Source of the DNA: Rubrobacter indicoceani
Lineage (GTDB): Bacteria; Actinomycetota; Rubrobacteria; Rubrobacterales; Rubrobacteraceae
NCBI RefSeq assembly: GCF_003568865.1
Contig: NZ_CP031115.1
Span: 434,001-498,000 of the forward strand
Direction of reading: 5' to 3'
DNA: 64,000 nucleotides
This document shows, one piece after another, positions 34,464 to 51,057 of this stretch. A program made the translations under genes and the position numbers. Under the pieces are notes generated by a model. That model was given only the letters and a program-made list of their open reading frames with translations, ran no database searches and was not told where the DNA came from. Position 1 is the first letter of the stretch. Every line of letters starts with the position of its first letter.

Positions 34464-37058
34464 ATGAGAGGTTTCGAGGCAGACGGCTTGCGGGAGTTCA
34501 GAGACGGCAACGAGCTTGCAAGGGCCTGGGACCTGCGCAACGGAGACGAGATGCGGCGGCTGCTCGACCGGGCCGTCTCCGCGAGCGTAAACGGCATCGT
34601 TATAACTGACCCGACGCTGCCGGACGATCCCATCATCTACACCAACCGGGCCTTCGAGCGGATGACGGGCTACACCCGGGAGGAGAGCGTCGGACACAAC
34701 TGCCGGTTTCTTCAGAAAGACGACGGGGACCAGGAGGAAATCGAGCGGCTGAGGGACGCGCTCCGCAAAGGGCGGGAGTCGCGGGTGGTGATCCGCAACT
34801 ACCGGAAGTCTGGGGAGATGTTCTGGAACGAACTCTACGTCTCTCCGGTTCACGACGAGAAGGGCAACCTGACGAACTTCATCGGGGTGCAGCACGACAT
34901 CACCGAGCGCAAAAGGGCCCAGGACGCCTTGAGCGAGCAGGAAGCCCAGTGGCGCACCCTGATAGAGAACAACCCCTCCTTTGTCGCCCTTATAAACCTT
35001 GACGGAACGGCGACCTACTACAACGCCGGCTGGCTGGAGTACCTCGGGGTGGAATCCGAAGAACTTCTGCGGCGCGAATGGCCGCAGAAGATACACCCGG
35101 AGGACCGGGACGACCTGCGCCGGACCCTGAAGGCGGCCTACGAGGCGGGCGAGAACTTCTCCATCCCGAGCATGAGGATTCAGCGGGGGGACGGAAACTA
35201 CCACTGGTTCTCGGCCCTTGTCTCCCCGGTCGTGGACGAGTCGGGTGAGATCACGTCCTGGATCACGGTCTCGACCGACATCGAGGAGATTCGCAAGACC
35301 GAGCAGGTGCTCCGCGAGAGTGAAGAGCGGCTCAGGCTGGCCCTTCGCGCAACCTCTCTTGGAACGTGGGACTACAACCCGATCGCGGGCGACCTCCGCT
35401 GGGACGACCGCACAAAGGCGATGTTCGGGCTTCCGCCGGAGTTCGAGAACGTCACCTACGACACCTTTCATCAGGGGCTGCACGCCTCGGAACGAGACCG
35501 GGTGGAGGGGGCCATAAAGCAAGCCTTCGACCCGGAGGGCGACGGCATCTTCGAGGAAGTGTTTCAGGTCACCGGGGCCGACGGCGTCGTTCGCTGGCTG
35601 TACTCGACCGGGCAGGCATTTTTCAGCAGGGTGAGCGGTGTAAAACAGACTCACCGCTTTATCGGCACGATACTGGACATAACCGAGCGCAAGCGGGCCG
35701 AGGAGGAGCGGGACCTGCTGCTCGCCCGCGAGCAACTGGCCCGTGCCGAGGCCGTCTCCGCCCGGCGCAGGCTCGACTTTCTGGTGGAGGCCGACACGGT
35801 CCTACTCTCCTCGACGGGCTACAAGCAGCGGCTCCGGGACACCGCGAAGCTCGCGGCGCGCAACCTCTGCGACTGGTGTCTTGTGGATGTTGTCGACGAG
35901 ACCGGAAACCTGACTCAGGTCTCCTCGCACCACGAAGACCCGCTTAAACAGGAGCTTCTCGATGAGCTGGAGCGGCACCGCAACCTCGGCGAAGGGGCCA
36001 CCGGCGTAGCGACGAGCGTCTACGAAAGCGGCAAGCCCCTTCTGATGCCCGACACTTCGGCGCTCGTTGCGGGCAACGCCTTTATAGACGAGGAGCGCCG
36101 GAAACTTCTTGAAAAGCTCGGGATGGGCTCGCTGATGAGCGTCCCGCTGCTCGCCCGGGGAAGAACGCTCGGGGTAATGACGCTTGTCTCCTCGGACCCG
36201 ATCCGGACCTACGGCAGGGAAGACCTCTCGCTCGCCGAGAACCTTGCTTACCGCTGCGCGCTGGCTGCGGACAACGCGCTCCTCTACCGGGAACGAAGCC
36301 GCATCGCCCGGACGCTCCAGCAAAGCCTGCTGCCGAAGATACCGGAAGTCGAGAACGTCGAGGTCGGGGTCGTCTACCTCTCGGTCGGAGAAGAGAGCCT
36401 TATCGGCGGCGATTTCTACGATCTCATCCAGACGGATTCCGGCAAGCTGCTTGCGGTCGTCGGGGACGTGTGCGGTAAAGGCCCGGCGGCGGCGGCCGTT
36501 ACCGCCCTTGCCCGCTACACCATCCAGGCGGTCGTGATGGAGAAGGACTCCCCGGCGAACGCGCTGAACTCCCTGAACCGGGCGATGCTCCGGCAGGTGG
36601 AGGACGTGAAGTTCTGCACGGTGGCCTGCGGTCGGCTCGAAGAGGCCGAAGGGACAAACGGTGAGTTCGACTTTATCGTGGCGCGGGGCGGACATCCGGC
36701 CCTTATCCTTGTGAGGGCCTCCGGGGAGGTCGAGAAGATCAACCCGAAAGGCCGGGTCATCGGGGTCTTCGACGCTCCCGGCCTCGAAGAGGAGTGGGTC
36801 CGTCTGAAGCCGGGGGACTCCGTCGTCCTCTACACGGACGGGGTCATCGAGGCAAAGAACGCCGAAGGCGAACTGTTTGGCGAGGAACACCTGCTGGAGA
36901 CGCTGGCCGGCCTGAAAGGTCTGTCGGCCAGGCAGATTGCCGACGGCCTGTGCGACATGGCCCACGAGTTCTCCGACGGTTCTCTTAAAGACGACATCGC
37001 TATCCTCGTGATCAGGATCCCACCCGAGCCCCCGCTGAACGGAACCTCTCCTGCGTAA
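34464..37058 (+). CDS. LOV-PAS-PAS-GAF-SpoIIE (PP2C) phosphatase
   Basis: 864-residue soluble protein. The LOV domain (about 30-145) has the flavin-binding signature VGHNCRFLQ with the photoactive Cys80, plus IVITDPTLPDDPIIYTNRAFERMTGY and RNYRKSGEMFWNELYVSP, all standard for blue-light LOV sensors. Two PAS domains (150-270, 275-410), a GAF domain (435-605) and a SpoIIE/RsbU serine phosphatase domain (620-855) follow: GGDFYDLI, GDVCGKGPAAAAVTALARY, ARGGHPALIL, LYTDGVIEAKN and SLKDDIAILVI carry the metal Asp residues. It probably controls an anti-anti-sigma pathway by light. No partner is nearby. TAGAAT lies 6 bases before the ATG and there is no SD. Confidence 0.94.
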   Translation: MRGFEADGLREFRDGNELARAWDLRNGDEMRRLLDRAVSASVNGIVITDPTLPDDPIIYTNRAFERMTGYTREESVGHNCRFLQKDDGDQEEIERLRDALRKGRESRVVIRNYRKSGEMFWNELYVSPVHDEKGNLTNFIGVQHDITERKRAQDALSEQEAQWRTLIENNPSFVALINLDGTATYYNAGWLEYLGVESEELLRREWPQKIHPEDRDDLRRTLKAAYEAGENFSIPSMRIQRGDGNYHWFSALVSPVVDESGEITSWITVSTDIEEIRKTEQVLRESEERLRLALRATSLGTWDYNPIAGDLRWDDRTKAMFGLPPEFENVTYDTFHQGLHASERDRVEGAIKQAFDPEGDGIFEEVFQVTGADGVVRWLYSTGQAFFSRVSGVKQTHRFIGTILDITERKRAEEERDLLLAREQLARAEAVSARRRLDFLVEADTVLLSSTGYKQRLRDTAKLAARNLCDWCLVDVVDETGNLTQVSSHHEDPLKQELLDELERHRNLGEGATGVATSVYESGKPLLMPDTSALVAGNAFIDEERRKLLEKLGMGSLMSVPLLARGRTLGVMTLVSSDPIRTYGREDLSLAENLAYRCALAADNALLYRERSRIARTLQQSLLPKIPEVENVEVGVVYLSVGEESLIGGDFYDLIQTDSGKLLAVVGDVCGKGPAAAAVTALARYTIQAVVMEKDSPANALNSLNRAMLRQVEDVKFCTVACGRLEEAEGTNGEFDFIVARGGHPALILVRASGEVEKINPKGRVIGVFDAPGLEEEWVRLKPGDSVVLYTDGVIEAKNAEGELFGEEHLLETLAGLKGLSARQIADGLCDMAHEFSDGSLKDDIAILVIRIPPEPPLNGTSPA

Positions 37059-37344: not shown

Positions 37345-39276
37345 TTGACCGTAAGCGGACATTTTTACCCGCTGGATCCGCTTTCGGAGGCGGAGATACG
37401 CGTCGTCGTGGGCGTCCTGAAAAGGGACCGGCGGATGGATAGTCGCTGGCGGTTCGCCTCCATCGAGCTGAAGGAACCGGATAAAGAGCGGCTGAAAAGC
37501 CATGACGCCGGAGAAGAAATCCCCCGCGAGGCTGACCTCGTCGTCTGGAACCGGGAGGACGGGCAGGCATACAAGGCAAGAGTCTCTCTGACGGAGGGGA
37601 CCGTGATCGGCTGGGAGCCTCGTCCCGGCGAGCAGCCTAACATCACCGTAGACGAGTTCCACGAGGCCGACGAGATGCTCCGTCAGCACCCGGACGCGAT
37701 AGAAGCTCTCAAAAAGCGCGGCATCACGGACTTGAACAAGGTTCTCTTCGACGTGTGGGCTTACGGTGGGTCGCTCGTCGCCGAGAGGCATCGAGGTCGG
37801 CGGGTCGGGTGGGCGGACGTGTGGGTTCGGGACCACGAAGACTCCAACCCGTATGCAAACCCCGTAAACGGGCTGCACTTCGTCGTGGACCTGAACAGCG
37901 TCGAGTTGCTCGAGGTCGAAGACGACTACGCCGTAGAACGTCCGGACGTCATGGGCGAGTACCTTCCGAAGTACGTGCCGGACCAGAAGCTGAGAGACGA
38001 CCTGAAGCCGCTGGAGATAGCGCAACCCGAGGGCGTCTCCTTCACCCTCGAAGGGAACCTGCTTGAGTGGCAGAAGTGGAGCCTGCGCGTCGGGTTCAAC
38101 TACCGCGAGGGGCTGGTGCTCCACACCGTCGGCTACAGAGACGAACGGGACGGCGGTCGTACCAGATCCATCGCGCATCGGATGTCGTTTGCGGAGATGA
38201 TCGTACCGTACCGCGACCCGTCGCCCGACCACTACCGCAGGACCGCCTTCGATATCGGGGAGTGGGGCCTCGGCTACATGACAAGCTCCCTGGAACTCGG
38301 CTGCGACTGTCTCGGTGAGATCCGCTACCTGGACGCCGTTCTCTCGGACTCGAAGGGCGAGCCGTACACCATAAAGAACGCCGTCTGCATCCACGAGGAG
38401 GACGACGCGCTTCTCTGGAAGCACGTCGACGAGGTCGCCGGCTCGGAGGTCAGGCGCAGCCGGAGGCTCGTCATATCGTTTCACGCGACCGTCGCCAACT
38501 ACGAGTACATCGTCTACTGGCGGTTCTATCAGGACGGCAACATCGAGTGCGAGGTACGGGCGACCGGGATCATGGTAACGACGAGCTTCGAGGGCGAAAG
38601 GCCGCCCTACGGGACGCTCGTAGACAGACGCACCTACGCCCCGCACCACCAGCACTTTCTTGTCGCTCGCCTCGACCTCGACGTGGACGGCGAGACGAAC
38701 ACCGTCTACATGACCGAGTCCGAGGCGACCCCCGTCTCCGACGAAAACCCCCACGGCCTCGGCCTCGTGCAGAAGTCCACGCCGCTCAAAACGGAGTCCG
38801 AGGGCAGGCAGGACTACAACTGGAACACGCAGCGGGCCTGGAAGGTCGTCAACGACGGAAAGAAGAACCGGCTCGGAACCTCGGTGGGGTACAAGCTTGT
38901 ACCGGGGGCGTGTTTCCCGGCGATGATGGATAAATCGTCGCCCGTCTTCAAGCGGGCCGGGGTCGTCGGCCACAACCTCTGGGTTACACCTTATTCCGAG
39001 GACGAACGCTGGCCCTGCGGGGAGTTCGTCAACCAGAGCGAGGTGGACTCCGGCCTGACGAAATGGACAGAACGGAACCGGAACATCGAAGAGGCGGATG
39101 TCGTGCTGTGGTACGTCTTCGGGATACACCACATCACCCGCCCGGAGGACTGGCCCGTCATGCCCGTGGATACCGTCTCGTTCTGGATGAAGCCCGTCGG
39201 GTTCTTTGACCGGAACCCGGCCCTCGACGTGCCGCCCGCGAGCAAAGGACATTGCCATTCAGGTGATCCGTCGTGA
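37345..39276 (+). CDS. Copper-containing primary-amine oxidase
   Basis: 643-residue quinoprotein that oxidises primary amines to aldehydes with release of ammonia and H2O2. Tyr386 in VANYEYIVYW is the residue converted to topaquinone (N-Y-E/D-Y motif), the copper ligands include the H-x-H pair at about 435-437 (HHQHFL), and the catalytic Asp lies in FDIGEWGLGYMTSSLELGCDC. No signal peptide is seen, so it appears cytoplasmic, as in Arthrobacter enzymes. TTG at 37345 has GAGGAGG upstream. It begins a four-gene overlapping operon with agmatinase and aminobutyraldehyde dehydrogenase, so putrescine or another diamine is the probable substrate. Confidence 0.95.
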   Translation: MTVSGHFYPLDPLSEAEIRVVVGVLKRDRRMDSRWRFASIELKEPDKERLKSHDAGEEIPREADLVVWNREDGQAYKARVSLTEGTVIGWEPRPGEQPNITVDEFHEADEMLRQHPDAIEALKKRGITDLNKVLFDVWAYGGSLVAERHRGRRVGWADVWVRDHEDSNPYANPVNGLHFVVDLNSVELLEVEDDYAVERPDVMGEYLPKYVPDQKLRDDLKPLEIAQPEGVSFTLEGNLLEWQKWSLRVGFNYREGLVLHTVGYRDERDGGRTRSIAHRMSFAEMIVPYRDPSPDHYRRTAFDIGEWGLGYMTSSLELGCDCLGEIRYLDAVLSDSKGEPYTIKNAVCIHEEDDALLWKHVDEVAGSEVRRSRRLVISFHATVANYEYIVYWRFYQDGNIECEVRATGIMVTTSFEGERPPYGTLVDRRTYAPHHQHFLVARLDLDVDGETNTVYMTESEATPVSDENPHGLGLVQKSTPLKTESEGRQDYNWNTQRAWKVVNDGKKNRLGTSVGYKLVPGACFPAMMDKSSPVFKRAGVVGHNLWVTPYSEDERWPCGEFVNQSEVDSGLTKWTERNRNIEEADVVLWYVFGIHHITRPEDWPVMPVDTVSFWMKPVGFFDRNPALDVPPASKGHCHSGDPS

Positions 39277-40259
39277 TAGACCCGACCCGGCGCTGGAGCG
39301 AGTACGGCGAGAAGCCGGACTACGCCGGGCTTCTGAGCTTCGGGGGCGCGCCGTACACCGAGAGCGCGGCGGAGCTTGCGGGCTTTGACGTGGCCATCAT
39401 CGGGGCGCCGATGGACGACCTCGTGTCGGACCGGCCGGGGACAAGGTTCGCCCCGCGCGCGATCCGGGCCGCTTCGTGTCCGCCCGGCCCGAACCTCGAG
39501 ACGGAGGTAGACGCCTTCGAGGCGCTCCGCATAGTGGACTTCGGGGATGCTCCGGTCGTTCCGGCGAATCCGGCCAAGTCCCACGAGGCCATCGAGAAGA
39601 CCGTGAGCGAAGCGCTCGGGGCGGGTTGCATTCCGGTTGTACTCGGGGGGGATCACTCGATCTCCGAGCCGGGCATCCGGGCGGTCGCGAGAAAGCACGG
39701 GCCGCCTGGGCTGGTCCATTTCGACACGCACACGGACACCGGGAGGACGGTTTTCGGGGCGGAGCTTTCGCACGGGACCATAATGCGCCGTCTTGTAGAG
39801 CAGGGCCACGTGGACCCGAACCGTTACGTCCAGATCGGCCTCCGGGGATACTGGCCGGGCGAAGAGGAGTTTCGGTGGCAACGGGAGCGGGGCATCAAGA
39901 GCATCTTCATGCACGAGATCCGGGACGGCGGCGTAGAGAACGCGGTGCGTCGCGCGGTCGCGGAGGTCGGGGCCGGGCCGGTTTTCCTCAGCGTGGACAT
40001 AGACGTTCTCGACCCGGCCTTCGCGCCCGGAACGGGGACGCCGGAGCCGGGCGGCCTGACCACGACGGAGCTGCTCCGGGCCGTTCGGGAGGTCGGTGAG
40101 GGGCTGGATCTCGTCGGGGCGGACGTCGTGGAGGTTATACCGGCGGCGGTCGGCTCGGCGGATATCACGGCGCTTGCGGCGGAGAGAGTCGTGCGGGAGG
40201 TTCTCGGCGGGCTGGCCGCGAGAAGGAAACCCGTGGAGCAGACGTGTCGGGGTTTCTGA
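39273..40259 (+). CDS. Agmatinase/guanidino-acid hydrolase of the ureohydrolase family
   Basis: 328-residue binuclear Mn enzyme that splits urea from agmatine or a similar guanidino compound. Metal motifs are intact: VLGGDHSISEPGI (about residue 125), LVHFDTHTDTGRT (about 150) and FLSVDIDVLDPAFAPGTGTPEPGG (about 235). In the last motif EPGG is shared by agmatinases and related enzymes. GTG at 39273 overlaps the amine oxidase stop by 4 bases (GTGA), meaning translational coupling. With the neighbours it fits agmatine to putrescine and urea; guanidinobutyrase remains possible. Confidence 0.9.
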   Translation: MIDPTRRWSEYGEKPDYAGLLSFGGAPYTESAAELAGFDVAIIGAPMDDLVSDRPGTRFAPRAIRAASCPPGPNLETEVDAFEALRIVDFGDAPVVPANPAKSHEAIEKTVSEALGAGCIPVVLGGDHSISEPGIRAVARKHGPPGLVHFDTHTDTGRTVFGAELSHGTIMRRLVEQGHVDPNRYVQIGLRGYWPGEEEFRWQRERGIKSIFMHEIRDGGVENAVRRAVAEVGAGPVFLSVDIDVLDPAFAPGTGTPEPGGLTTTELLRAVREVGEGLDLVGADVVEVIPAAVGSADITALAAERVVREVLGGLAARRKPVEQTCRGF

Positions 40260-40522
40260 AGATTCTGGCCGGGGTGTACGGCGTTCTCTGCCTGCTTGCC
40301 CTGTTCGTGATCCCGGCGAGCGCGAACGGCTGGTTCGGCTTCGAGCCGGACCCGCTCAGCGCGGTACCGGCGATCTTTCTGGCCCTGCCCTGGAGCCTCG
40401 GGTTTGGTCTTCTGGGGGAGGTCGGAGCATTTTTGAGCGTGCTGGCGCTCGTGGGTGCGATGTTAACAAACGCGGGGATTCTGTACGGGGTCTCCCGCCT
40501 GATAGAGAGGAAGGGACCGTGA
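40244..40522 (+). CDS. Small membrane protein coupled to agmatinase and aldehyde dehydrogenase
   Basis: 92-residue protein with two or three hydrophobic helices (LAGVYGVLCLLALFVIPAS, AVPAIFLALPWSLGFGLL and VGAFLSVLALVGAMLTNAGILYGV) and a short basic C-terminus. GTG at 40244 lies 16 bases inside the agmatinase end, and its stop overlaps the GTG of the aldehyde dehydrogenase by 4 bases. So it is locked into the polyamine operon although I do not recognise the family. It could be an accessory membrane factor, for example a transporter subunit, but nothing in the sequence proves that. Confidence 0.82.
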   Translation: MSGFLKILAGVYGVLCLLALFVIPASANGWFGFEPDPLSAVPAIFLALPWSLGFGLLGEVGAFLSVLALVGAMLTNAGILYGVSRLIERKGP

Positions 40523-41949
40523 CGAGGACGCTAAAGAACTTTATTGGAGGGGACTACGTCGAGGCGGGCGCAAACGGAGGATTCGGCCTCGTGAACCCCG
40601 CGAGCGAAGAGACGTTCGCCGAGTCGCCCGCAACGGACGGGGCCGGGATCAACGCCGCCTTCAGGGCCGCAGAGAAAGCCTTTGAAGCTTACCGGGACTC
40701 GACCCCGGCGGACCGGCAGAAGGCCCTGCTCGGCATCGCCGACAGGATCGAAGAAAGGGCCGAGGAGATAGTCGCTGCCGAGTCCGAGAACACCGGAAAG
40801 CCGCTCGGGCTGACGCTTGAGGAAGAGATCCCGATGGCGACGGATCAGATCCGGTTCTTCGCCGGGGCCGCCCGCGTCCTTGAAGGGAAGGCCGCCGGGG
40901 AGTACATGGAGGGCATGACGAGCTTTGTCCGGCGCGAGCCGATCGGCGTCTGCGCGCAGGTTACGCCCTGGAACTACCCGCTCCTTATGGCGATCTGGAA
41001 GATCGCTCCGGCGCTCGCGGCCGGGAACACCGTCGTGTTGAAACCCTCGGACACGACCCCGGTCTCCACGCTGATGCTCGCCGAGATCGCAAGCGAGTTC
41101 CTTCCGGCGGGCGTCCTGAACGTGGTCTGCGGCGACCGCGACACCGGACGCGCCCTGATAGAACACCCCACCCCGCAGATGGTCTCCATCACCGGCTCTG
41201 TCCGGGCGGGGATGGAGGTCGCGAAGAGCGCGGCCTCAGACCTGAAGAAAGTCCACCTGGAACTCGGCGGGAAGGCCCCGGTCATTGTCTTTGATGACGC
41301 GGACATCGAAGGAGCCGCCGAGGAGATAGCGGGCGCGGGCTACTTCAACGCCGGACAGGACTGCACCGCCGCGACCCGTGTTCTTGTCGCGCCGGGCGTC
41401 CACGAGGAGTTCGTCGCCGCGCTCACCGAACAGGCCAGAGGTTCAAAGACCGGCCAGCCCGACGATGAAGATATCCTCTACGGTGCGCTCAACAACGAGA
41501 ACCAGCTGGCCCACGTCAGCGGCATGGTCGAGCGGACGCCGTCGCACGCCGAAGTCAAGACGGGCGGCAGGCGGCAGGGTGAGCGCGGCTACTTCTACGA
41601 GGCGACGGTCGTGGACGGGCTGCGTCAGGACGACGAGCTTTCGCAGAACGAGGTCTTCGGGCCGGTTATAACCGTGCAGCAGTTCTCCGACGAGGACGAG
41701 GCCGTGAGGTGGGCGAACGGCGTGAAGTACGGGCTTGCGTCGAGCGTCTTCACCCGGGACCACGGCCGGGCGATGCGGGTCAGCCGGCGGCTGGACTTCG
41801 GGTGCGTCTGGATCAACACGCACATCCCGCTTGTCGCCGAGATGCCCCACGGCGGTTTCAAGCACTCCGGCTACGGCAAGGACCTCTCGATGTACGGCCT
41901 CGAAGACTACACCCGTATCAAGCACGTAATGACCAACCTCGGGGTGTAG
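40519..41949 (+). CDS. Gamma-aminobutyraldehyde dehydrogenase-type ALDH
   Basis: 476-residue NAD-dependent aldehyde dehydrogenase close to PatD/Prr and betaine-aldehyde dehydrogenases. Motifs: GVCAQVTPWNYPLLMAIWKIAPALAAGNTVVLKPSDTTP (about 140-178), SITGSVRAGMEVAKSAA, catalytic Glu in HLELGGKAPVIVFDDADIE (about 245) and catalytic Cys in YFNAGQDCTAATRVLV (about 281), then FGPVITVQQF and GGFKHSGYGKDLSMYGLEDYTRIKHVM, whose C-terminal helix is typical of 4-aminobutanal enzymes. It oxidises aminobutyraldehyde from putrescine to GABA. GTG at 40519 overlaps the preceding gene (GTGA), with GAGAGGAAGGGA as SD. A weak hairpin follows at 41970-41989. Confidence 0.92.
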   Translation: MTRTLKNFIGGDYVEAGANGGFGLVNPASEETFAESPATDGAGINAAFRAAEKAFEAYRDSTPADRQKALLGIADRIEERAEEIVAAESENTGKPLGLTLEEEIPMATDQIRFFAGAARVLEGKAAGEYMEGMTSFVRREPIGVCAQVTPWNYPLLMAIWKIAPALAAGNTVVLKPSDTTPVSTLMLAEIASEFLPAGVLNVVCGDRDTGRALIEHPTPQMVSITGSVRAGMEVAKSAASDLKKVHLELGGKAPVIVFDDADIEGAAEEIAGAGYFNAGQDCTAATRVLVAPGVHEEFVAALTEQARGSKTGQPDDEDILYGALNNENQLAHVSGMVERTPSHAEVKTGGRRQGERGYFYEATVVDGLRQDDELSQNEVFGPVITVQQFSDEDEAVRWANGVKYGLASSVFTRDHGRAMRVSRRLDFGCVWINTHIPLVAEMPHGGFKHSGYGKDLSMYGLEDYTRIKHVMTNLGV

Positions 41950-42838: not shown

Positions 42839-44407
42839 CTAGCGGCGTTTCTTCGGCGCCTCCGGGGGCGCGCCGGCCGTCTCGGTGACCTTTACCTCAC
42901 CGGAAGCCACCTCCGGCGGGACAGTCTCCGGCTTGCGTCCGAAGAACTCCTCGTGGCCACCACCGGTTACGCGCCAGAGAACCATGAAGACCACCCCGAG
43001 CAGCAGGAAGCCGAGGCCGATCACGAGCGGCATACCGATCCCGAGAAACGACCCGCCCGTGTAAGACGCACCGGGGTCCGAGAGGTCTACTATCGAGACA
43101 AAGAACAGGTACGCAAGAAGCGATGCCCCGAGCACCGGAGCCAGCCCGATGAAAAGGAAGTTCTTGACCGACTTCGTGAGTTCCTTTCTGTAGTAGATAG
43201 CGCACGCGAAGCCGGTGAGGGCGTAGTAGAAGGCGATCATCAAGGAGAGCGCGCTCAGCGTGTCGAAGAGGAAGTTCTCGCTTACGAGGTTTATCGGGAC
43301 GTACCAGATTATCGCGAGTATCCCGATGGCCATCGTCGAGACGTGCGGGGTGAGGAACCTCGGATGTACCTTCCCCATCACCCTCGGAAACGCTCCGGCC
43401 CGCGCCATCGAGAGCGTGGTGCGCGAGGCCGGGAGGATGGTCGTCTGCGTCGAGGCGAGCGCGCTCGTCAGCACGGAGACGACCACGAGCAGGTACCAGG
43501 GCGAGCCGAGGACACCCGTGGCGACGGTTGAGAGAATCGCGTCGTCGTCGGCGAACTCCGTAACCGTCCCGAGCCCGGCGAAGGCCACGACCGCCACCGC
43601 GACGGAGAGGTACGTCGCAAGGAGGATCACCGTGGAGAACACCGCCGCAAGCCCCGGCGTCGAGGAGGAGTCGGTCGTCTCTTCGGTCAGGTTCACGGAC
43701 GATTCCCAGCCCCAATAGATAAAGACCCCGATCAGCAAGCCGCCGATAAGCGCGCTCGAATCCTGTATCGCAAACGGGTTAAACCAGGAGAGTTCCGGGG
43801 AGAGCGAGGTCGCCGAGGAGCCGGAGAAGACAAGGTAGAGAGCGACCCCGGCGAAGACGAGCAGCGTAACGACCTGAGCGACGATCATGACGTTCTGGAC
43901 CTTTGCCGAGAGTTCTATCCCGATAACGCACACCGCCGTCATGACGATCATGTACACGACCGCGAGCAAAGTTATGGCGGGTTTCGAGGCCGCAAGCCCG
44001 TCGAGGGAGAACAGCAGGTAGGTGTAGCGGGCGGCCACGTCCGCAAGCGACCCGATAACGAGGATCCCCGTAACGCAGATGGCCCAGCCGCCCATCCACC
44101 CGGCCCATGGACCCATCGCCCGCGTAACCCACGAAAAGGTCGTGCCGCAGTCCTGATCCGCGCGGTTCATGTAGTAGAAAGCCGTTGCGATAAAGAACAT
44201 CGGGACAAACGAGGCGAACAGAACCGCCGGGGACTGAACCCCGACCGTTACGACTATCAGCCCGATAACCGCCGCCAGCGAGTACGCCGGAGCCGTTGAC
44301 GCTATCCCGATGACGAGCGCGTCCATAAAGCCTATCGCGCCCTTTTTGAGCCCCTTTTCGCCGGTCTCGGGTGCGCCGCCCGCCGTCTTCTCCGATATCT
44401 GTGCCAT
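42839..44407 (-). CDS. APC-superfamily amino acid/polyamine permease
   Basis: 522-residue transporter with 12 predicted helices. The N-terminus has GAIGFMDALVIGIASTAPAYSLAAVIGLIV with the APC unwound-helix signature, then DCGTTFSWVTRAMGPWAGWMGGWAICVTGIL and, near residue 230, FIYWGWESSVNLTEET. The ATG at 44407 has GGGGAAGGG as SD. It is the third gene of the operon aminotransferase, amine oxidase, permease, so polyamine or diamine import is the best inference. The C-terminal tail after the last helix is a long charged cytoplasmic extension (about 45 residues). Confidence 0.92.
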   Translation of the reverse strand: MAQISEKTAGGAPETGEKGLKKGAIGFMDALVIGIASTAPAYSLAAVIGLIVVTVGVQSPAVLFASFVPMFFIATAFYYMNRADQDCGTTFSWVTRAMGPWAGWMGGWAICVTGILVIGSLADVAARYTYLLFSLDGLAASKPAITLLAVVYMIVMTAVCVIGIELSAKVQNVMIVAQVVTLLVFAGVALYLVFSGSSATSLSPELSWFNPFAIQDSSALIGGLLIGVFIYWGWESSVNLTEETTDSSSTPGLAAVFSTVILLATYLSVAVAVVAFAGLGTVTEFADDDAILSTVATGVLGSPWYLLVVVSVLTSALASTQTTILPASRTTLSMARAGAFPRVMGKVHPRFLTPHVSTMAIGILAIIWYVPINLVSENFLFDTLSALSLMIAFYYALTGFACAIYYRKELTKSVKNFLFIGLAPVLGASLLAYLFFVSIVDLSDPGASYTGGSFLGIGMPLVIGLGFLLLGVVFMVLWRVTGGGHEEFFGRKPETVPPEVASGEVKVTETAGAPPEAPKKRR

Positions 44408-44458: not shown

Positions 44459-45790
44459 CTACCGGAACCCGCCTAGCGCCCCCGAGACCCTCTCCGCCGC
44501 CTTTATGCCAGCTACGACCGCGCTGTTCATGAAGCTCGGCGCGGGGGCATAACCTTCGCACCCGGCGAGCTGCAAGTTGCCGAACGAGCCGCCCATCGCG
44601 CCGCCGAACGTCGCAAGGTCGCCGGGTGCGAGGATCATATAACTCCCCCCGGAGTACACGTCTTCCGCCCAGACACTCTCCACGACCGCCTTCGGTTCCG
44701 GGACATCGTAGAGCTTCGTCAGCGCCTGTACATCCCTCGCCAGACGGTTTTCCTTTGAAAGTCCAAGCTCCGGCAAGAGCGGTTCGCCCCCTGAAAACGA
44801 AACGACGCCCGATAAACCAACGCCGGACTGTGAAGCCCCGCAGTACCCGAGCGGCCCGTCCGAAACGGTGAAGGGTACTTCTCCAGTATCCCCCTCGAAG
44901 ACGAAGTGCAGCTTTCTGACGATCCCGTAGGACGCCCGTCGGGACATCTTGCGCCAGGTGAGCGGCAAGGATTTGTCCGGCGAGAACTCGATGCGTCGCC
45001 AGACCGGAGGCGGAACCGCGAGGATGGCTTTTCGCCCCCGATAAACAACGTATCCATCCGATGTTATGCACCGCACGGAAACTCCGTCCTCGTCCTGCTC
45101 TATCCCGACGACGGGGCTGGAATAAGAGATCCTCCCTGAAAGCTCCCCTGCCATCGTCGCGGCGACGCTGCCCGCCCCCCCGACGACCCGGTACTCGTTG
45201 CCTTTGCCGGGGCCGCCGCGCGTAGCGGCCTTGTTCGCGTAGGCGTAGAAAGACATCTTGCCGAGCGGAACGGTCGAGCCGCAGGAGGCGAGCAAAGTTT
45301 CCAGAACGTGCAGGCCATCATCCGACATGCCTTCCCGCAAAAGCCATGTACGAACACTAACGTCGACGTCGCGGTGGTGTGGAGCGTTACGCAGGAACGT
45401 GCCAGTATCGTTTGACCCGGATACGTCGTGCATCGCCTCGTTCATGCGCCTGTAGATGCGCTCGTCCGGGCCGTTCAGGGGGATATGATCCGTGCTCTCG
45501 CCCCGGATGTACCACAGACCGCCGCTTTTCTTGCCGCTCGTCGGCGCGAGTTCGAGGCCGAGTTCTTCTACGAGGTCGCGCAATGCGGTGTGGGCGGCGT
45601 CCACCCATTCGCCGCCGAGGTCGAGGGTAACGCCGTCTACCTCGCGGGTGCAGGTTCTTCCGCCCGGTCGGTCGCGGGCTTCGAGAACCGTTACCTCGGC
45701 GCCGTCCCGGACGAGTTCTCGGGCCGCGACGAGGCCGGAGAGCCCCGCTCCGACCACCACCACGTCGGTCGGGTAAGGTTTGTTGTTCAA
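44459..45790 (-). CDS. FAD-dependent monoamine/putrescine oxidase
   Basis: 443-residue flavin amine oxidase. FAD-binding GAGLSGLVAARELVRDGAEVTVLEARDRPGGRTCTREVDGVTLDLGGEWVD lies at the N-terminus (about residues 14-65), and the C-terminal FAD contact is GCEGYAPAPSFMNSAVVAGIKAAERV. It oxidises an amine with O2, giving an aldehyde, ammonia and H2O2. Close relatives include actinobacterial putrescine oxidases, which fits the operon. The TTG at 45790 lies 6 bases after the aminotransferase stop, with GGAG 10 bases upstream. It is a second amine oxidase in this region, mechanistically unrelated to the copper enzyme at 37345-39276. Confidence 0.92.
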   Translation of the reverse strand: MNNKPYPTDVVVVGAGLSGLVAARELVRDGAEVTVLEARDRPGGRTCTREVDGVTLDLGGEWVDAAHTALRDLVEELGLELAPTSGKKSGGLWYIRGESTDHIPLNGPDERIYRRMNEAMHDVSGSNDTGTFLRNAPHHRDVDVSVRTWLLREGMSDDGLHVLETLLASCGSTVPLGKMSFYAYANKAATRGGPGKGNEYRVVGGAGSVAATMAGELSGRISYSSPVVGIEQDEDGVSVRCITSDGYVVYRGRKAILAVPPPVWRRIEFSPDKSLPLTWRKMSRRASYGIVRKLHFVFEGDTGEVPFTVSDGPLGYCGASQSGVGLSGVVSFSGGEPLLPELGLSKENRLARDVQALTKLYDVPEPKAVVESVWAEDVYSGGSYMILAPGDLATFGGAMGGSFGNLQLAGCEGYAPAPSFMNSAVVAGIKAAERVSGALGGFR

Positions 45791-45796
45791 GGTCGG

Positions 45797-47161
45797 TTAG
45801 CTCCGGTAGCCGAGCTGCTTTTCGAGCTCTGTCAGGGCCGAGTCTGTTATGTCTGCGATCTTCGACAGGATCTCTTTGTCCGAGATAAGCGCGGGGGAGA
45901 ACTGAATCACCGGGTCGTCCTTGTCGTCGAAGCGGCAGATCAGACCACCCTCCAGAAGCTTCCGAGACACTACGCCCTTGAAATATCTCTGGTATTCGTC
46001 GCCCTGCAAAGGCGTGCCGTCGGCCTTTTCGGGGTTGATCTCGACCGCCCAGAAAAAGCCCATCCCGCGCACCTCACTGACCACCGGGTGATCGGCGGCC
46101 ATCCGGCGCAGTTCGTCTCCGAAGTGTCCTTCTAAGTTGTGGACGTTTTCGAGAAGCTTCTCCCGCTCGATGATCCGGATGTTCTCTAGCGCAACCGCGC
46201 TCGATACGGGATGACCGCCGAACGTCGAGCCGTGGCTGAACATCGGGGCGTTTTCTTTCAGGGTGTTCGCTATCCTGTCGTTTACGACGACGCCGCCCAT
46301 CGGCAGGTAGCCCGACGTAACGCCCTTGGCGAACGTGCTCATGTCCGGTACGACACCGAAGCGTTCGATCCCGAACCACTCTCCGAGCCGCCCGAAGGCG
46401 CAGATAACCGCGTCCGAGACAAGCAGGACGCCGTGCCTGTCGCAGATCTCCCTTACCCGCTTCCAGTAGTCCATCGGCGGGACAAGGCAGCCGCCCGCGT
46501 TCTGCACGGGTTCGAGGATGACGGCGGCGATCTGATCCGGCCCCTCGGCTTCGATCATCTGCTCTATCGCGTCCGCCGCGCCTTCCGGGTCCTGCTGGGT
46601 GTTCCTGACGTGATGGAAGCCCGCCGGGAGCGGCTCGAACGGGGCCTTGAAACCCGGCAGACCCGTTACGCTCAGGGCCCCCAGCGTCGTCCCGTGATAG
46701 GCAACGTCGCGCGAGATGATCTTGTACCGCCCCGGCTCCCCGTTTACCTTGTGATACTGCCGCGCCAGCTTTATGACGCTCTCCACCGCCTCCGAGCCGC
46801 TCGACACAAAGAACGTGCTGTTCAAATCCCCCGGCGCGATTTCAGCTATCTTTTTCGCAAGCTCCAGGCTCCTCGGGTGCTGGAAACTCCAGTTCGGGAA
46901 AAAGCCAAGCTGCCTCATCTGCCCCGCTGCGACCTCTGCAAGCTCCTCGCGCCCGTGCCCGACCTGCGTCGTGAACAGCCCCGCAAGCCCGTCTATGTAC
47001 GTGTCGCCCCTGCTGTCCGTGACGTGACAACCCTCGCCCGAAACGATAACGGGCAACTTCGACCAGTCTTCGGCATACGGCGTGAAGTGCAGCATCAGGT
47101 TGTCGACCCCCGAAAGCAGAGTCCGCGAACCCTCTTCACCCAGACCGTGCATCACATCCAT
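45797..47161 (-). CDS. Class III (omega) aminotransferase
   Basis: 454-residue PLP enzyme of fold type I. It has FFVSSGSEAVESVIKLARQYH (phosphate cup), YHGTTLGALSVTG, and the PLP Asp in LLVSDAVICAFGRLGEW (the usual DEV reads DAV here, common in this subgroup), with Schiff-base Lys in MSTFAKGVTSGYLPMGGV (about residue 286). Such enzymes move the terminal amino group of putrescine, spermidine or beta-alanine to pyruvate. ATG at 47161 has AGGAGG. A promoter with TTGACC, 17-bp spacer and TAGGAT lies upstream, and a TTACTGTAA palindrome sits in the spacer. Confidence 0.92.
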   Translation of the reverse strand: MDVMHGLGEEGSRTLLSGVDNLMLHFTPYAEDWSKLPVIVSGEGCHVTDSRGDTYIDGLAGLFTTQVGHGREELAEVAAGQMRQLGFFPNWSFQHPRSLELAKKIAEIAPGDLNSTFFVSSGSEAVESVIKLARQYHKVNGEPGRYKIISRDVAYHGTTLGALSVTGLPGFKAPFEPLPAGFHHVRNTQQDPEGAADAIEQMIEAEGPDQIAAVILEPVQNAGGCLVPPMDYWKRVREICDRHGVLLVSDAVICAFGRLGEWFGIERFGVVPDMSTFAKGVTSGYLPMGGVVVNDRIANTLKENAPMFSHGSTFGGHPVSSAVALENIRIIEREKLLENVHNLEGHFGDELRRMAADHPVVSEVRGMGFFWAVEINPEKADGTPLQGDEYQRYFKGVVSRKLLEGGLICRFDDKDDPVIQFSPALISDKEILSKIADITDSALTELEKQLGYRS

Positions 47162-47216: not shown

Positions 47217-47245
47217 ATCCTACATACTTACTGTAAGGCGGTCAA
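47217..47245 (-). promoter_or_regulatory. Promoter and operator of the aminotransferase-oxidase-permease operon
   Basis: On the minus strand TTGACC (47245-47240) and TAGGAT (47222-47217) are separated by exactly 17 bases, close to a sigma-A consensus. The palindrome TTACTGTAA (47228-47236), extendable to CTTACTGTAAG, lies inside the spacer, where a bound repressor would block RNA polymerase. A related half-site (TTTCTGTAAAT, 47208-47218) follows. The same TTACNGTAA word occurs in front of alanine dehydrogenase at 48236-48244. Confidence 0.6.
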
Positions 47246-47259
47246 GAAGGCTGCAGGGT

Positions 47260-48078
47260 TCAGAAAGTCGGCGGGGTATTGACGTAGACCGCCTCCACGT
47301 CCTCTTCTCCGGCCCACCAGCGGTGGGGGATCGTGGAGTGGAAGTAGAAGGTGTCTCCGGGGCCCAGGGCGTGGACTTCCCGGTCGGTGAGTTCAAAGTA
47401 CATGATGCCCTTTACGATGTAGACGAATTCTTCGCCTTCGTGGGCGTAGAAGCCCTCGCTCCCGGCCCCGGCGGGGACCTTTATGTACGATGGGTCCATC
47501 GCCGTATCGCCGCAGGCCATCTCTTCGAAGCGAATGCCGTTCTCCCAGGTCATGACCGGGCGTTCGTCGGCCCGGACAAGCGGGGTCTTCTCTTCGAGGT
47601 CGGCCCCGAAGAGTTCACGGGTCGTGATACCGTAGGCCGAGGCCAGCACCTTCAGGGACGCGACCGAAGCCCCCGAGCCGCCCCGCTCCAGCGCGGAGAT
47701 AAACGAGATAGAGAGGCCCGTGATCTCCGCGACCTCCTTGAGCGTCTTGTGGGTCTTCATCCTCAGCCGCCGCAGACGTTCACCGGGCGATTGGCCGTTC
47801 AGAACCTCCGGGCCGGGTGCATGGTGGCCGTTCGTACTCTCCGGCGGCCCGAGGGACTTCCGGATAGCCGCGAAGTTCAGACCCTCGGACGTCCTGAGGT
47901 ACTTGATCTTCCTGAGCCGCTTCACGTCGTACTCCGAATAGACCCTGTATCCCCGCCCCGTCCTGCCCGGGCTCACGAGCTCCTCCCGTTCCCACAATCT
48001 CAGCGTCTGAGGCGCAAGACCCACCGACCGGGAAACCTCCCCGATGGAAAAGCCCAGCGAACCGTCCCTCGTAGCCAT
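47260..48078 (-). CDS. MerR-XRE-cupin triple-domain transcriptional regulator
   Basis: 272-residue regulator with two different DNA-binding domains. Residues 9-76 are a MerR HTH and wing (FSIGEVSRSVGLAPQTLRLWEREELVSPGRTGRGYRVYSEYDVKRLRKIKYLR). Residues 99-155 are an XRE HTH (GERLRRLRMKTHKTLKEVAEITGLSISFISALERG). Residues 198-268 form a cupin (EGFYAHEGEEFVYIVKG, ALGPGDTFYFHSTIPHRW) with metal or ligand His and Glu. The XRE-cupin part resembles PuuR, the putrescine repressor. ATG at 48078 has AGGAG about 12 bases upstream; a GTG at 48111 is an alternative. It sits between the aminotransferase operon and alanine dehydrogenase and probably controls both. Confidence 0.92.
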   Translation of the reverse strand: MATRDGSLGFSIGEVSRSVGLAPQTLRLWEREELVSPGRTGRGYRVYSEYDVKRLRKIKYLRTSEGLNFAAIRKSLGPPESTNGHHAPGPEVLNGQSPGERLRRLRMKTHKTLKEVAEITGLSISFISALERGGSGASVASLKVLASAYGITTRELFGADLEEKTPLVRADERPVMTWENGIRFEEMACGDTAMDPSYIKVPAGAGSEGFYAHEGEEFVYIVKGIMYFELTDREVHALGPGDTFYFHSTIPHRWWAGEEDVEAVYVNTPPTF

Positions 48079-48232
48079 ACTCTTCTCAGTCTCCTGACGA
48101 CCGTCGCTCACCAGATACAGTTTGAAGTATACCTATTGATCAGATCATTTTCGTAGCAGACCACCAACCCCGAGAATGTCTATTGTCATGCATTATATGC
48201 CATAAGATATGGTGAAATCCTTATTCTCTACA

Positions 48233-48261
48233 TCTTTACCGTAAGCTGAGCTGAGTATAAG
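48233..48261 (+). promoter_or_regulatory. Promoter/operator in front of alanine dehydrogenase
   Basis: TTACCGTAA at 48236-48244 is a perfect palindrome with the same TTACNGTAA form as the one in front of the aminotransferase operon. A -10-like TATAAG lies at 48256-48261, so the palindrome covers the -35 region. The whole 48079-48321 gap is much richer in A+T than its surroundings and separates the divergent regulator and ald genes. Confidence 0.5.
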
Positions 48262-48321: not shown

Positions 48322-49440
48322 ATGACGGTGGTAGGTGTTCCGAAGGAGATCAAGGACAAAGAGGGTCGGGTTGCGATGCAGCCGGACGGTATCCACGAGC
48401 TTCTGCATCACGGTCACGAGGTTGTCGTGCAGTCGGGTGCGGGGGGCGGGGCCGGGTTCTCCGACGCCGAGTACGAGACCGTCGGGGCGAGGATAGTCGG
48501 CACGGCGGAGGAGGTTTTCGGGGGGGCAGATCTCATCGTCAAGGTCAAGGAGCCCGTTCCCGGGGAGTACGGGTTGTTTCGGGAGGGCCAGCAGCTCTTT
48601 ACGTATCTTCACCTTGCCGCCGACCGCGGTCTGACGGAGTTTCTGATGGAGCGGAAGATAGACTCCGTCGCCTACGAGACCGTCGAGGAGTCGGATGGTA
48701 CGCTGCCGCTGCTCACGCCGATGAGCGAGGTGGCCGGGAGGATGGCGACGCAGGCGGCGGCGCACTGCCTTGAGAGCCCGCAGGGCGGGGCGGGGGTGCT
48801 GATGGGCGGTGTTCCGGGGACCCCGGCGGCGAAGGTTACCATCATCGGCGGCGGGGTCGTCGGCTTCGAGGCCGCGAAGATAGCCGTCGGGATGCGGGCG
48901 ATAGTCCGGGTTTTGGACATCAGCCCCAAGCGGCTGGCCTACCTCGGGGACGTATTCGACGGGCGCGTGGACCTCGTCGTACCGAACCGGGCGAGGACGG
49001 CGGCCTACGTTGCGGAGTCCGATGTGGTGATCGGGGCCGTTCTCGTGCACGGAGCGAAAGCCCCGAAGCTCGTGAGCCGGGAGATGATAGCTTCGATGCG
49101 CGACGGAAGCGTCGCGGTGGACGTCGCCATAGATCAGGGCGGCTGCATTGAGACCGCCCGCCCGACGACCCACTCCGACCCGACCTACGTGGAGGAGGGC
49201 GTCGTGCATTACTGCGTTGCGAACATCCCCGGCGCGGTCGCGAGAACCTCCACGCTCGCACTTACAAGCGTAACCCTGCCGTTTCTGGTGAAGATCGCAG
49301 ACAGCGGGGTAGAGGGGGCGGCCCGTTCGGACGCCGCGCTCTACAAGGGGCTTTCGACGCTCCGGGGCGATCTCGTGAGCAAACCCGTCTCGGAGGCACA
49401 CGAGCTCGCCTACACCGATGCGGCGAAGGTACTGGGCTGA
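48322..49440 (+). CDS. ald: Alanine dehydrogenase
   Basis: 372-residue NAD-dependent enzyme interconverting L-alanine and pyruvate plus ammonia. It begins MTVVGVPKEIKDKEGRVAMQPDGIHELLHHGHEVVV, has catalytic Lys/His in VKVKEPVPGEYGLF and FTYLHLAADRGLT, and the NAD Rossmann motif VTIIGGGVVGFEAAKIAVGMRA (about 170-190). C-terminal NIPGAVARTSTLALT is diagnostic. The length is standard. It is divergent from the MerR-XRE-cupin gene and followed by a permease remnant and gabT. In this setting it can recycle the alanine formed when amines are transaminated to pyruvate. Confidence 0.96.
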   Translation: MTVVGVPKEIKDKEGRVAMQPDGIHELLHHGHEVVVQSGAGGGAGFSDAEYETVGARIVGTAEEVFGGADLIVKVKEPVPGEYGLFREGQQLFTYLHLAADRGLTEFLMERKIDSVAYETVEESDGTLPLLTPMSEVAGRMATQAAAHCLESPQGGAGVLMGGVPGTPAAKVTIIGGGVVGFEAAKIAVGMRAIVRVLDISPKRLAYLGDVFDGRVDLVVPNRARTAAYVAESDVVIGAVLVHGAKAPKLVSREMIASMRDGSVAVDVAIDQGGCIETARPTTHSDPTYVEEGVVHYCVANIPGAVARTSTLALTSVTLPFLVKIADSGVEGAARSDAALYKGLSTLRGDLVSKPVSEAHELAYTDAAKVLG

Positions 49441-49668: not shown

Positions 49669-49737
49669 AGACCAGCGGGCGCGTCTGTACGGAGCATGCC
49701 CGGTTATACTCGCACAAGACAAGAAAGAGGTGCATGG

Positions 49738-51057
49738 ATGCTCAAGTCAACGCAGATAAAGACGGAGATACCCGGCCCGAAAAGCCTGGAGCTTCAGGAA
49801 CGCAGGAAAAAGGCCGTGAGCGCGGGGCTTGGAACGGCCATTCCGGTGTGGGCCGCCGAGGCTGAGGGCGCGCTCGTCACCGACGTGGACGGCAACGTCT
49901 TTCTGGACTTCGGGGGCGGCATCGGGGTTTTAAACGCCGGACACAACCACCCGAAGGTAGTCGAGGCGATAAAGGAGCAGGCCGGGAAGCTTATCCACAC
50001 CTGCTTCTATGCGACGCAGTACGAGCCGTACCTGGAGCTCGCCGAGAAGCTGAACGAGATCGCCCCCGGAAGCTTCGAGAAGCACTCCTTTCTTGTCAAC
50101 TCCGGGGCCGAGGCGGTCGAGAACGCCGTCAAAATCGCCCGCGCCTACACCGGGAAACCGGGCGTTCTCGCCTTTGAGAACGGCTTTCACGGGCGGACGC
50201 TTCTGGCGGCGACCCTGACGGCGAAGGCGAACCCGTACAAGCAGAGCTTCGGGCCGCTCGCGCCGGAGGTTCACCGGATGCCCGCGCCGTATCCGTACCG
50301 CCGTCCGTCCGAGGACTGGTTTGAGGCGTTCAAGCGTTCGCTGTCGAACGTGGACCTGACGATGGTCGGGTGCGCCATCGTCGAACCGGTTCAGGGTGAG
50401 GGTGGTTTTCACCCGTGGCCGAAGCGCGACCTCGAAAAGCTCGCGGCGTGGTGCAGGGAGAACGACGTCCTCTTTATAGACGACGAGGTGCAGAGCGGCT
50501 TCGGGCGTACGGGGAAGATGCTCGCCATCGAGCACTACGATGTAGAGCCGGACCTCGTGACGACTGCCAAGAGCATGGGCGGCGGGATGCCGATCTCGGG
50601 CGTCACGGGGCGGGCGGAGGTGATGGATCACGTCCACGTCGGCGGCATCGGCACGACCTACGGCGGCAACCCCGTCTCGTGCGCCGCGGCCCTGGCGGTC
50701 ATCGAAGCTTTCGAGGAAGACAACGTTCTCGAACGGGCGGAGAGGCTCGGAGAGCGGCTGCTCACCGGCCTGAAGGAGATCCAGCACAACAACCCGGACT
50801 TCGTCGGTGATGCTCGCGGTCTCGGGCCGATGGCGGGGCTGGAGTTCGTAACTGACTCGGCGAGCAAGACCCCCGACCCGGAAGGCACGAAGCGCGTCGT
50901 GCATCACGCCCTCGAAAACGGCCTGATGCTCCTTACGGCGGGCGGCTACGGCAACGTCATACGGACGCTCATGCCGCTCGTTATCACCGACGAGCAACTG
51001 GACGAGGGGCTTGCGATCCTCGCCCGCGCCGTGGGCGAGGCGGCCTCGGAGAAGTAA
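49738..51057 (+). CDS. gabT: 4-aminobutyrate aminotransferase-type class III aminotransferase
   Basis: 439-residue PLP enzyme. Motifs: LVTDVDGNVFLDFGGGIGVLNAGHNHPKVV at the N-terminus, SFLVNSGAEAVENAVKIARAYTGKPGVLAFENGFHGRT, VQGEGGFHPWP, FIDDEVQSGFGRTGKMLAIEHYDVEPDLVTTAKSMGGGMPISGVTGRAEVMD (Asp for PLP N1; Schiff-base Lys about residue 282) and TTYGGNPVSCAAALAV. It closely follows the GabT pattern that converts GABA and 2-oxoglutarate to succinate semialdehyde and glutamate. ATG at 49738 follows AAAGAGGTG. A succinate-semialdehyde dehydrogenase is not adjacent; the ALDH at 18.6 kb is a distant candidate only. Confidence 0.93.
   Translation: MLKSTQIKTEIPGPKSLELQERRKKAVSAGLGTAIPVWAAEAEGALVTDVDGNVFLDFGGGIGVLNAGHNHPKVVEAIKEQAGKLIHTCFYATQYEPYLELAEKLNEIAPGSFEKHSFLVNSGAEAVENAVKIARAYTGKPGVLAFENGFHGRTLLAATLTAKANPYKQSFGPLAPEVHRMPAPYPYRRPSEDWFEAFKRSLSNVDLTMVGCAIVEPVQGEGGFHPWPKRDLEKLAAWCRENDVLFIDDEVQSGFGRTGKMLAIEHYDVEPDLVTTAKSMGGGMPISGVTGRAEVMDHVHVGGIGTTYGGNPVSCAAALAVIEAFEEDNVLERAERLGERLLTGLKEIQHNNPDFVGDARGLGPMAGLEFVTDSASKTPDPEGTKRVVHHALENGLMLLTAGGYGNVIRTLMPLVITDEQLDEGLAILARAVGEAASEK

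What the first reader, a model, noticed from the sequence alone, without database searches (positions are those of the whole stretch)
47227..48261. MerR-XRE-cupin regulator with the same TTACNGTAA palindrome in both flanking promoters
The sequence shows one protein with two different HTH domains (MerR 9-76, XRE 99-155) and a PuuR-like cupin. It also shows TTACTGTAA at 47228-47236, inside a 17-bp promoter spacer of the aminotransferase operon, and TTACCGTAA at 48236-48244, over the -35 region of ald. XRE-cupin proteins such as PuuR sense putrescine, and MerR proteins twist promoter DNA. My inference is that one protein uses two DNA contacts to switch both operons in response to a polyamine or an amino-acid signal. 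This may be an undescribed regulator architecture.
Basis: partly seen in the sequence, partly recalled or inferred. Interest (0 to 1): 0.7.

Follow-up and report, generated by a model that had tools for sequence, protein, structure and literature searches.

The report
Two-headed regulator of polyamine breakdown genes
In Rubrobacter bacteria a single protein that fuses two different DNA-reading heads to a small-molecule sensor sits between two sets of genes for breaking down polyamines and alanine, and a conserved DNA tag found essentially nowhere else in these genomes marks both sets as its likely targets.

Summary
The protein (ATG 48078 to stop 47260, minus strand, 272 aa) has MerR, XRE and cupin domains, all above Pfam cut-offs. 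TTACNGTAA occurs in the window only at the two stated sites. The 9-mer alone is weak: 15 copies in the genome, the 13 others in coding sequence as read here. It is the left part of a longer element, TTACARTAANNNTGYAR (17 bp, perhaps 21). In 39 family genomes (about 127 Mb) exact copies occur 17 times, all upstream of the aminotransferase (16) or ald (1), none for the reversed control. Near-copies recur at ald, at the aminotransferase and, in other genera, at the regulator's own promoter, mostly where the regulator gene is present. Both HTH domains are strongly conserved. Neighbours (agmatinase, amine oxidases, aldehyde dehydrogenase, GABA aminotransferase, PotABCD-like transporters) point to agmatine/putrescine catabolism. 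Best reading: a local, probably autoregulated repressor released by a polyamine-pathway metabolite. MerR-style promoter twisting is not supported, because the aminotransferase promoter spacer is already 17 bp. The MerR-XRE-cupin architecture is rare in the genomes sampled and I found no paper describing it. Which HTH reads which part of the element is unresolved.

The parts
47260..48078 (-). Regulator gene, 272 aa: MerR (aa 9-75), variable linker (77-97), XRE (101-155), cupin (198-264)
   Evidence: Pfam hits above cut-offs; ATG 48078 consistent with the orthologue alignment
47220..47236 (-).
   Evidence: conserved in other genera
47217..47245 (-). Promoter of the aminotransferase operon, TTGACC-17-TAGGAT, with the operator lying in the spacer and over the -10
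48228..48244 (-).
   Evidence: conserved in other genera
48256..48261 (+). Likely -10 of ald (TATAAG), conserved as TTATAAG in relatives
   Evidence: not scored by the consensus scanner
45797..47161 (-). Class-III omega-aminotransferase, first gene of the operon
   Evidence: NF005102 above cut-off; related to solved polyamine:pyruvate and beta-alanine:pyruvate transaminases
44459..45790 (-). FAD amine oxidase; nearest solved relatives are putrescine oxidases
42839..44407 (-). APC amino-acid/polyamine permease
48322..49440 (+). Alanine dehydrogenase (ald)
   Evidence: TIGR00518 above cut-off
49696..51057 (+). 4-aminobutyrate aminotransferase (gabT)
   Evidence: TIGR00700 above cut-off
37345..41946 (+). 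Nearby copper amine oxidase (37345-39273), agmatinase (39273-40256, TIGR01230 above cut-off) and aldehyde dehydrogenase (inside ORF 40096-41946); pathway context, no operator found upstream
   Evidence: no operator nearby with 2 or fewer mismatches

Best explanation
The MerR-XRE-cupin protein is a dedicated local regulator of an agmatine/putrescine catabolic locus in Rubrobacteraceae. It most likely binds, as a dimer or higher oligomer, a roughly 17-21 bp element (TTACARTAANNNTGYAR plus a conserved T four bases on) that overlaps the core promoters of ald and of the omega-aminotransferase operon and, in several genera, of its own gene. By occupying these promoters it represses transcription; when its cupin domain binds a pathway metabolite (agmatine, putrescine, GABA or a near relative) repression is relieved. 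The co-regulated enzymes make sense together: the omega-aminotransferase would pass amino groups to pyruvate, giving alanine, and alanine dehydrogenase would regenerate pyruvate and release ammonia. Shown by computation: domains, conservation of both HTHs, a conserved single-locus element in three promoter contexts, co-occurrence with the regulator, pathway neighbours. Inferred: that this protein binds the element, the sign of regulation, the ligand and the aminotransferase's substrates.
For: The domains are present and both HTH regions are nearly invariant in 22 orthologues (MerR 79%, XRE 85% mean pairwise identity, linker 22%). Exact TTACARTAANNNTGYAR occurs 17 times in 39 genomes (about 127 Mb), all upstream of the aminotransferase or ald, reversed control 0. 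Element against regulator presence: aminotransferase promoters 17/19 with the regulator, 2/10 without (Fisher p = 0.0004); ald promoters 17/22 against 1/8 (p = 0.0025). The element overlaps core promoter sequence in all three contexts. The order ald - regulator - (peptidase-like gene) - aminotransferase is kept in most genera. Agmatinase and an aldehyde dehydrogenase follow ald, and PotABCD-like transporters and amine oxidase follow the aminotransferase, in relatives. XRE-cupin proteins of Pseudomonas are local repressors of neighbouring metabolic genes, including PauR for polyamines (PMC7901475).
Against: No binding or expression data. The pattern was derived from the sites it then recovers, so only the absence of hits elsewhere is independent evidence. 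Species are related, so the Fisher tests overstate independence. Genus g2 (G002, G014, G022) keeps the regulator beside ald but lacks the element. G025 and one aminotransferase copy in G035 have the element although no regulator was found; both are fragmented drafts. A strong, well-spaced promoter suggests repression, but activation cannot be excluded from sequence.
Confidence: 0.66

Rival explanations
1. The regulator is an activator, or has both signs: its MerR domain works in TnrA fashion, or the fusion bends the promoter, and ligand binding turns transcription on directly.
For: The best solved MerR relatives are TnrA and GlnR. Their site TGTNAN7TNACA has the same 5-7-5 geometry as TTRCA-N7-TGYAA, and TnrA mainly activates from optimally spaced promoters (PMC6191146). 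In the aminotransferase promoter the element lies in the -35/-10 spacer, the classic MerR position.
Against: The spacer is 17 bp, so no twisting is needed. At ald the element lies over the -35 side, and at the aminotransferase and own promoters it runs into or abuts the -10, positions where a bound protein would block polymerase. Described XRE-cupins are inhibitors (PMC7901475).
Confidence: 0.2
2. Only one HTH domain recognises the element; the other is a dimerisation or structural module or binds elsewhere. (This is a rival on mechanism and is compatible with the best explanation on targets.)
For: The 17-bp TTRCA-N7-TGYAA reading matches a MerR-type (TnrA/GlnR) operator by itself. A MerR repressor, CvkR, uses AnnACATnATGTnnT, with a 9-bp core shaped like TTACNGTAA (PMC9938897).
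Against: Both recognition regions are nearly invariant. The conserved columns are not explained by one dyad: TAA at 7-9 fits only the 9-mer dyad and A16 only the 17-bp dyad. However, neither dyad exceeds a column-shuffled null, so this is weak.
Confidence: 0.45
3. Another, unlinked regulator binds the element and the MerR-XRE-cupin protein is a bystander.
For: G025 and G035 carry the element with no regulator detected; genus g2 has the regulator without the element.
Against: The exact element is confined to this locus in 39 genomes, as expected for a dedicated local regulator; this regulator gene lies between or beside the targets in most genera; presence correlates. The element also recurs at the regulator's own promoter.
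Confidence: 0.1
4. The repeated 9-mer is a chance or composition effect.
For: 15 copies genome-wide, 13 in coding sequence; two in a 64-kb window is reached by 3% of shuffles.
Against: Position-specific conservation across many genera in three promoter contexts, and no exact 17-mer elsewhere in about 127 Mb.
Confidence: 0.01

Closest known systems
XRE-cupin regulators (PuuR of E. coli; PauR, PsdR, ErfA of Pseudomonas)
   Same: XRE HTH followed by a cupin sensor; local control of neighbouring metabolic genes; polyamine context; likely autoregulation
   Different: An extra N-terminal MerR winged-HTH domain; PuuR model score far below its equivalog cut-off
MerR branch TnrA/GlnR
   Same: MerR-type winged HTH (best solved MerR relatives); 17-bp site of 5-7-5 geometry; optimally spaced promoters (PMC6191146)
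   Different: TnrA/GlnR respond to glutamine synthetase through a C-terminal tail and have no XRE or cupin domain; the site letters differ (TGTNA against TTRCA)
CvkR, a MerR-type repressor of CAST systems (PMC9938897)
   Same: MerR-type repressor with a short palindromic core around a single central base; one target promoter has a 17-bp spacer
   Different: No second, XRE-type HTH; unrelated targets

Membership tests
XRE-cupin regulators | HTH_3 domain followed by a Cupin_2 domain | tested here: met
   foldseek best hit 1y9q, an XRE-cupin protein (domain placement in the model uncertain, pTM 0.44)
XRE-cupin regulators | Target genes adjacent to the regulator gene, sites over core promoters | tested here: met
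   by sequence only: candidate operators; family property from PMC7901475
XRE-cupin regulators | Transcription inhibitor | not testable with these tools
   promoter overlap is suggestive only
PuuR (NCBIfam NF007408 equivalog) | Score above the equivalog cut-off | tested here: not met
   42.9 bits against 211
MerR superfamily | MerR winged-HTH domain at the N terminus | tested here: met
   PF13411 80.5 bits, PF00376 50.8 bits
MerR superfamily (classic metal/drug/redox activators) | Operator inside an over-long 19-20 bp promoter spacer | tested here: not met
   17-bp spacer at the aminotransferase promoter; element over the -35 side at ald
TnrA/GlnR | 17-bp site TGTNAN7TNACA | tested here: not met
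   same 5-7-5 spacing but different letters, TTRCAN7TGYAA

The most novel reading that the evidence does not exclude
One protein reads a single composite, asymmetric operator with two unrelated HTH domains at once: one head on the TTACNGTAA palindrome, the other on the flanking TGYAA arm. This would be a distinct operator-recognition mode for a MerR-XRE-cupin family of local catabolic regulators.
Probability: 0.3. Interest if true: 0.72.

Novelty: new variant of a known kind. Interest (0 to 1): 0.52.

Why it matters
Bacterial one-component regulators usually have one DNA-binding domain and one sensor. A regulator with two different, both conserved HTH domains and an operator that can be defined closely from sequence gives a ready test of how two heads share one site. 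It also gives a first candidate control system for agmatine/putrescine use in Rubrobacter, and a natural case of omega-aminotransferase and alanine dehydrogenase under one regulator, a pairing used in biocatalysis (from general knowledge).

Tried and rejected
(1) Chance repeat of the 9-mer: rejected by conservation across genera. (2) Genome-wide regulon: rejected; the 13 other 9-mers are coding and the exact 17-mer is confined to this locus. (3) Choosing between the 9-mer and the 17-bp dyad by symmetry: the 9-mer dyad scores highest (7.76), the 17-bp dyad lower (4.22), neither beyond the 95% shuffled-column value of 8.25; undecided. (4) Explaining G025 by a contig break beside ald: its ald is preceded by a different MerR gene and an MFS gene, so the regulator, if present, lies elsewhere; unresolved. 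(6) An alternative conserved palindrome for genus g2: GGAAGTATACTTCC in one species overlaps a likely -10 and is not kept as a palindrome in the others. (7) First ald counts (17/19 against 1/9) left out genus g2 and counted a site with only 17 bp of upstream sequence; corrected.

Full report
What was checked. The protein has MerR, XRE and cupin domains, all above Pfam cut-offs. The window lies in a 3.08-Mb genome; close orthologues are from Rubrobacter and uncultured Rubrobacteraceae.

Is the 9-mer special? By itself, barely. The genome has 15 copies against 2 for the reversed control. Reading the surroundings of the other 13 showed them inside reading frames, often in Val/Thr codons (for L005 the frame was judged by eye).

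The real element. Oriented upstream regions of family members showed that conservation runs past the 9-mer. Sites at the aminotransferase promoter (17 genes), the ald promoter (20 rows, one genome entered twice) and the regulator's own promoter (11) share TTACARTAANNNTGYAR, with TAA at 7-9, T13 and A16 among the best-kept letters and a further conserved T at 21. The exact 17-mer occurs 17 times in 39 genomes: sixteen upstream of the aminotransferase, one upstream of ald, none elsewhere, none for the reversed control. In the window's own genome the only matches with at most one mismatch are the two sites here. The pattern came from these sites, so the independent content is the absence of hits anywhere else.

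Link to the regulator. Aminotransferase promoters carry the element in 17 of 19 cases with the regulator gene and 2 of 10 without; ald promoters in 17 of 22 and 1 of 8. Related species are not independent, so these p-values are optimistic. Exceptions: genus g2 (regulator, no element) and the drafts G025 and G035 (element, no regulator found). In G025 the gene upstream of ald is a different MerR protein.

Where the element sits. At the aminotransferase promoter (TTGACC-17-TAGGAT) it fills most of the spacer and touches the -10. At ald it overlaps the -35 side; in many relatives TTGCAC within it is followed by 17 bp and TATAAG (from sequences, counted by hand). At the own promoter it lies just upstream of a TATACT-like -10. 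These placements suit a repressor; the 17-bp spacers make MerR-type twisting unnecessary.

The protein. Across 22 orthologues the MerR (79%), XRE (85%) and cupin (76%) parts are conserved while the linker is not (22%), and both recognition regions are nearly identical. The structure prediction is fair per domain (mean pLDDT 78.8) but not for domain arrangement (pTM 0.44). The best solved MerR relatives are TnrA structures, with GlnR close behind; their 17-bp site has the same 5-7-5 spacing (PMC6191146). The MerR repressor CvkR shows that a 9-bp core around one central base can also be a MerR site (PMC9938897), so geometry alone does not assign the heads.

Pathway. The window holds a copper amine oxidase, agmatinase, aldehyde dehydrogenase, permease, FAD amine oxidase (nearest solved relatives putrescine oxidases), omega-aminotransferase, ald and gabT. 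In relatives agmatinase and an aldehyde dehydrogenase lie downstream of ald, and PotABCD-like transport genes lie on the aminotransferase side. This points to agmatine/putrescine use. The pyruvate-alanine cycle through aminotransferase and alanine dehydrogenase follows from known enzyme chemistry; the amino acceptor was not tested.

Wider family. Orthologues (63% identity or more) occur in 22 of 39 Rubrobacteraceae genomes, with a 46% relative in one more; in a sample of another actinobacterial class 10 of 395 genomes matched, two of these only in part. Their neighbours differ: a BCCT transporter and beta-keto acid cleavage enzyme (G004), a methane/phenol/alkene-type hydroxylase (G074, G254, G310), amidohydrolase and polysaccharide deacetylase (G419). 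This fits local regulators reused for different catabolic genes. Paper searches found no description of the fusion, but only open-access papers are held.

Verdict. A new variant of the XRE-cupin local regulator with an added MerR head.

Noticed in passing
L057, L068, L069, L070, L058 upstream of the aminotransferase: Aminotransferase promoters that lack the element in G001 (second contig), G002, G004, G014 and G011 share another stretch around GTCGAC followed by an ATACAGTATAT-like run, suggesting a different regulator there.
   Followed up: no
L116:6291-7614 (G001, C4): The aminotransferase copy next to the regulator is interrupted (two frames, one TGA) while a second intact copy lies on another contig without the element.
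   Followed up: no
L112:6221-8035 and equivalents: In many genera a peptidase-like gene (its start recalls S9 prolyl oligopeptidases; no NCBIfam hit) lies between regulator and aminotransferase; it is absent in the window genome.
   Followed up: partly
L108:4474-6513 (G025): A separate MerR gene and an MFS-like transporter gene lie upstream of ald where the regulator would be expected.
   Followed up: partly
L114, L194, L195: Distant MerR-XRE-cupin proteins sit beside a methane/phenol/alkene-type hydroxylase gene carrying a YHS domain in three actinobacterial genera.
   Followed up: partly
window 34464-37055 (+): Large ORF upstream of the copper amine oxidase whose start recalls PAS-type regulators; not examined.
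   Followed up: no
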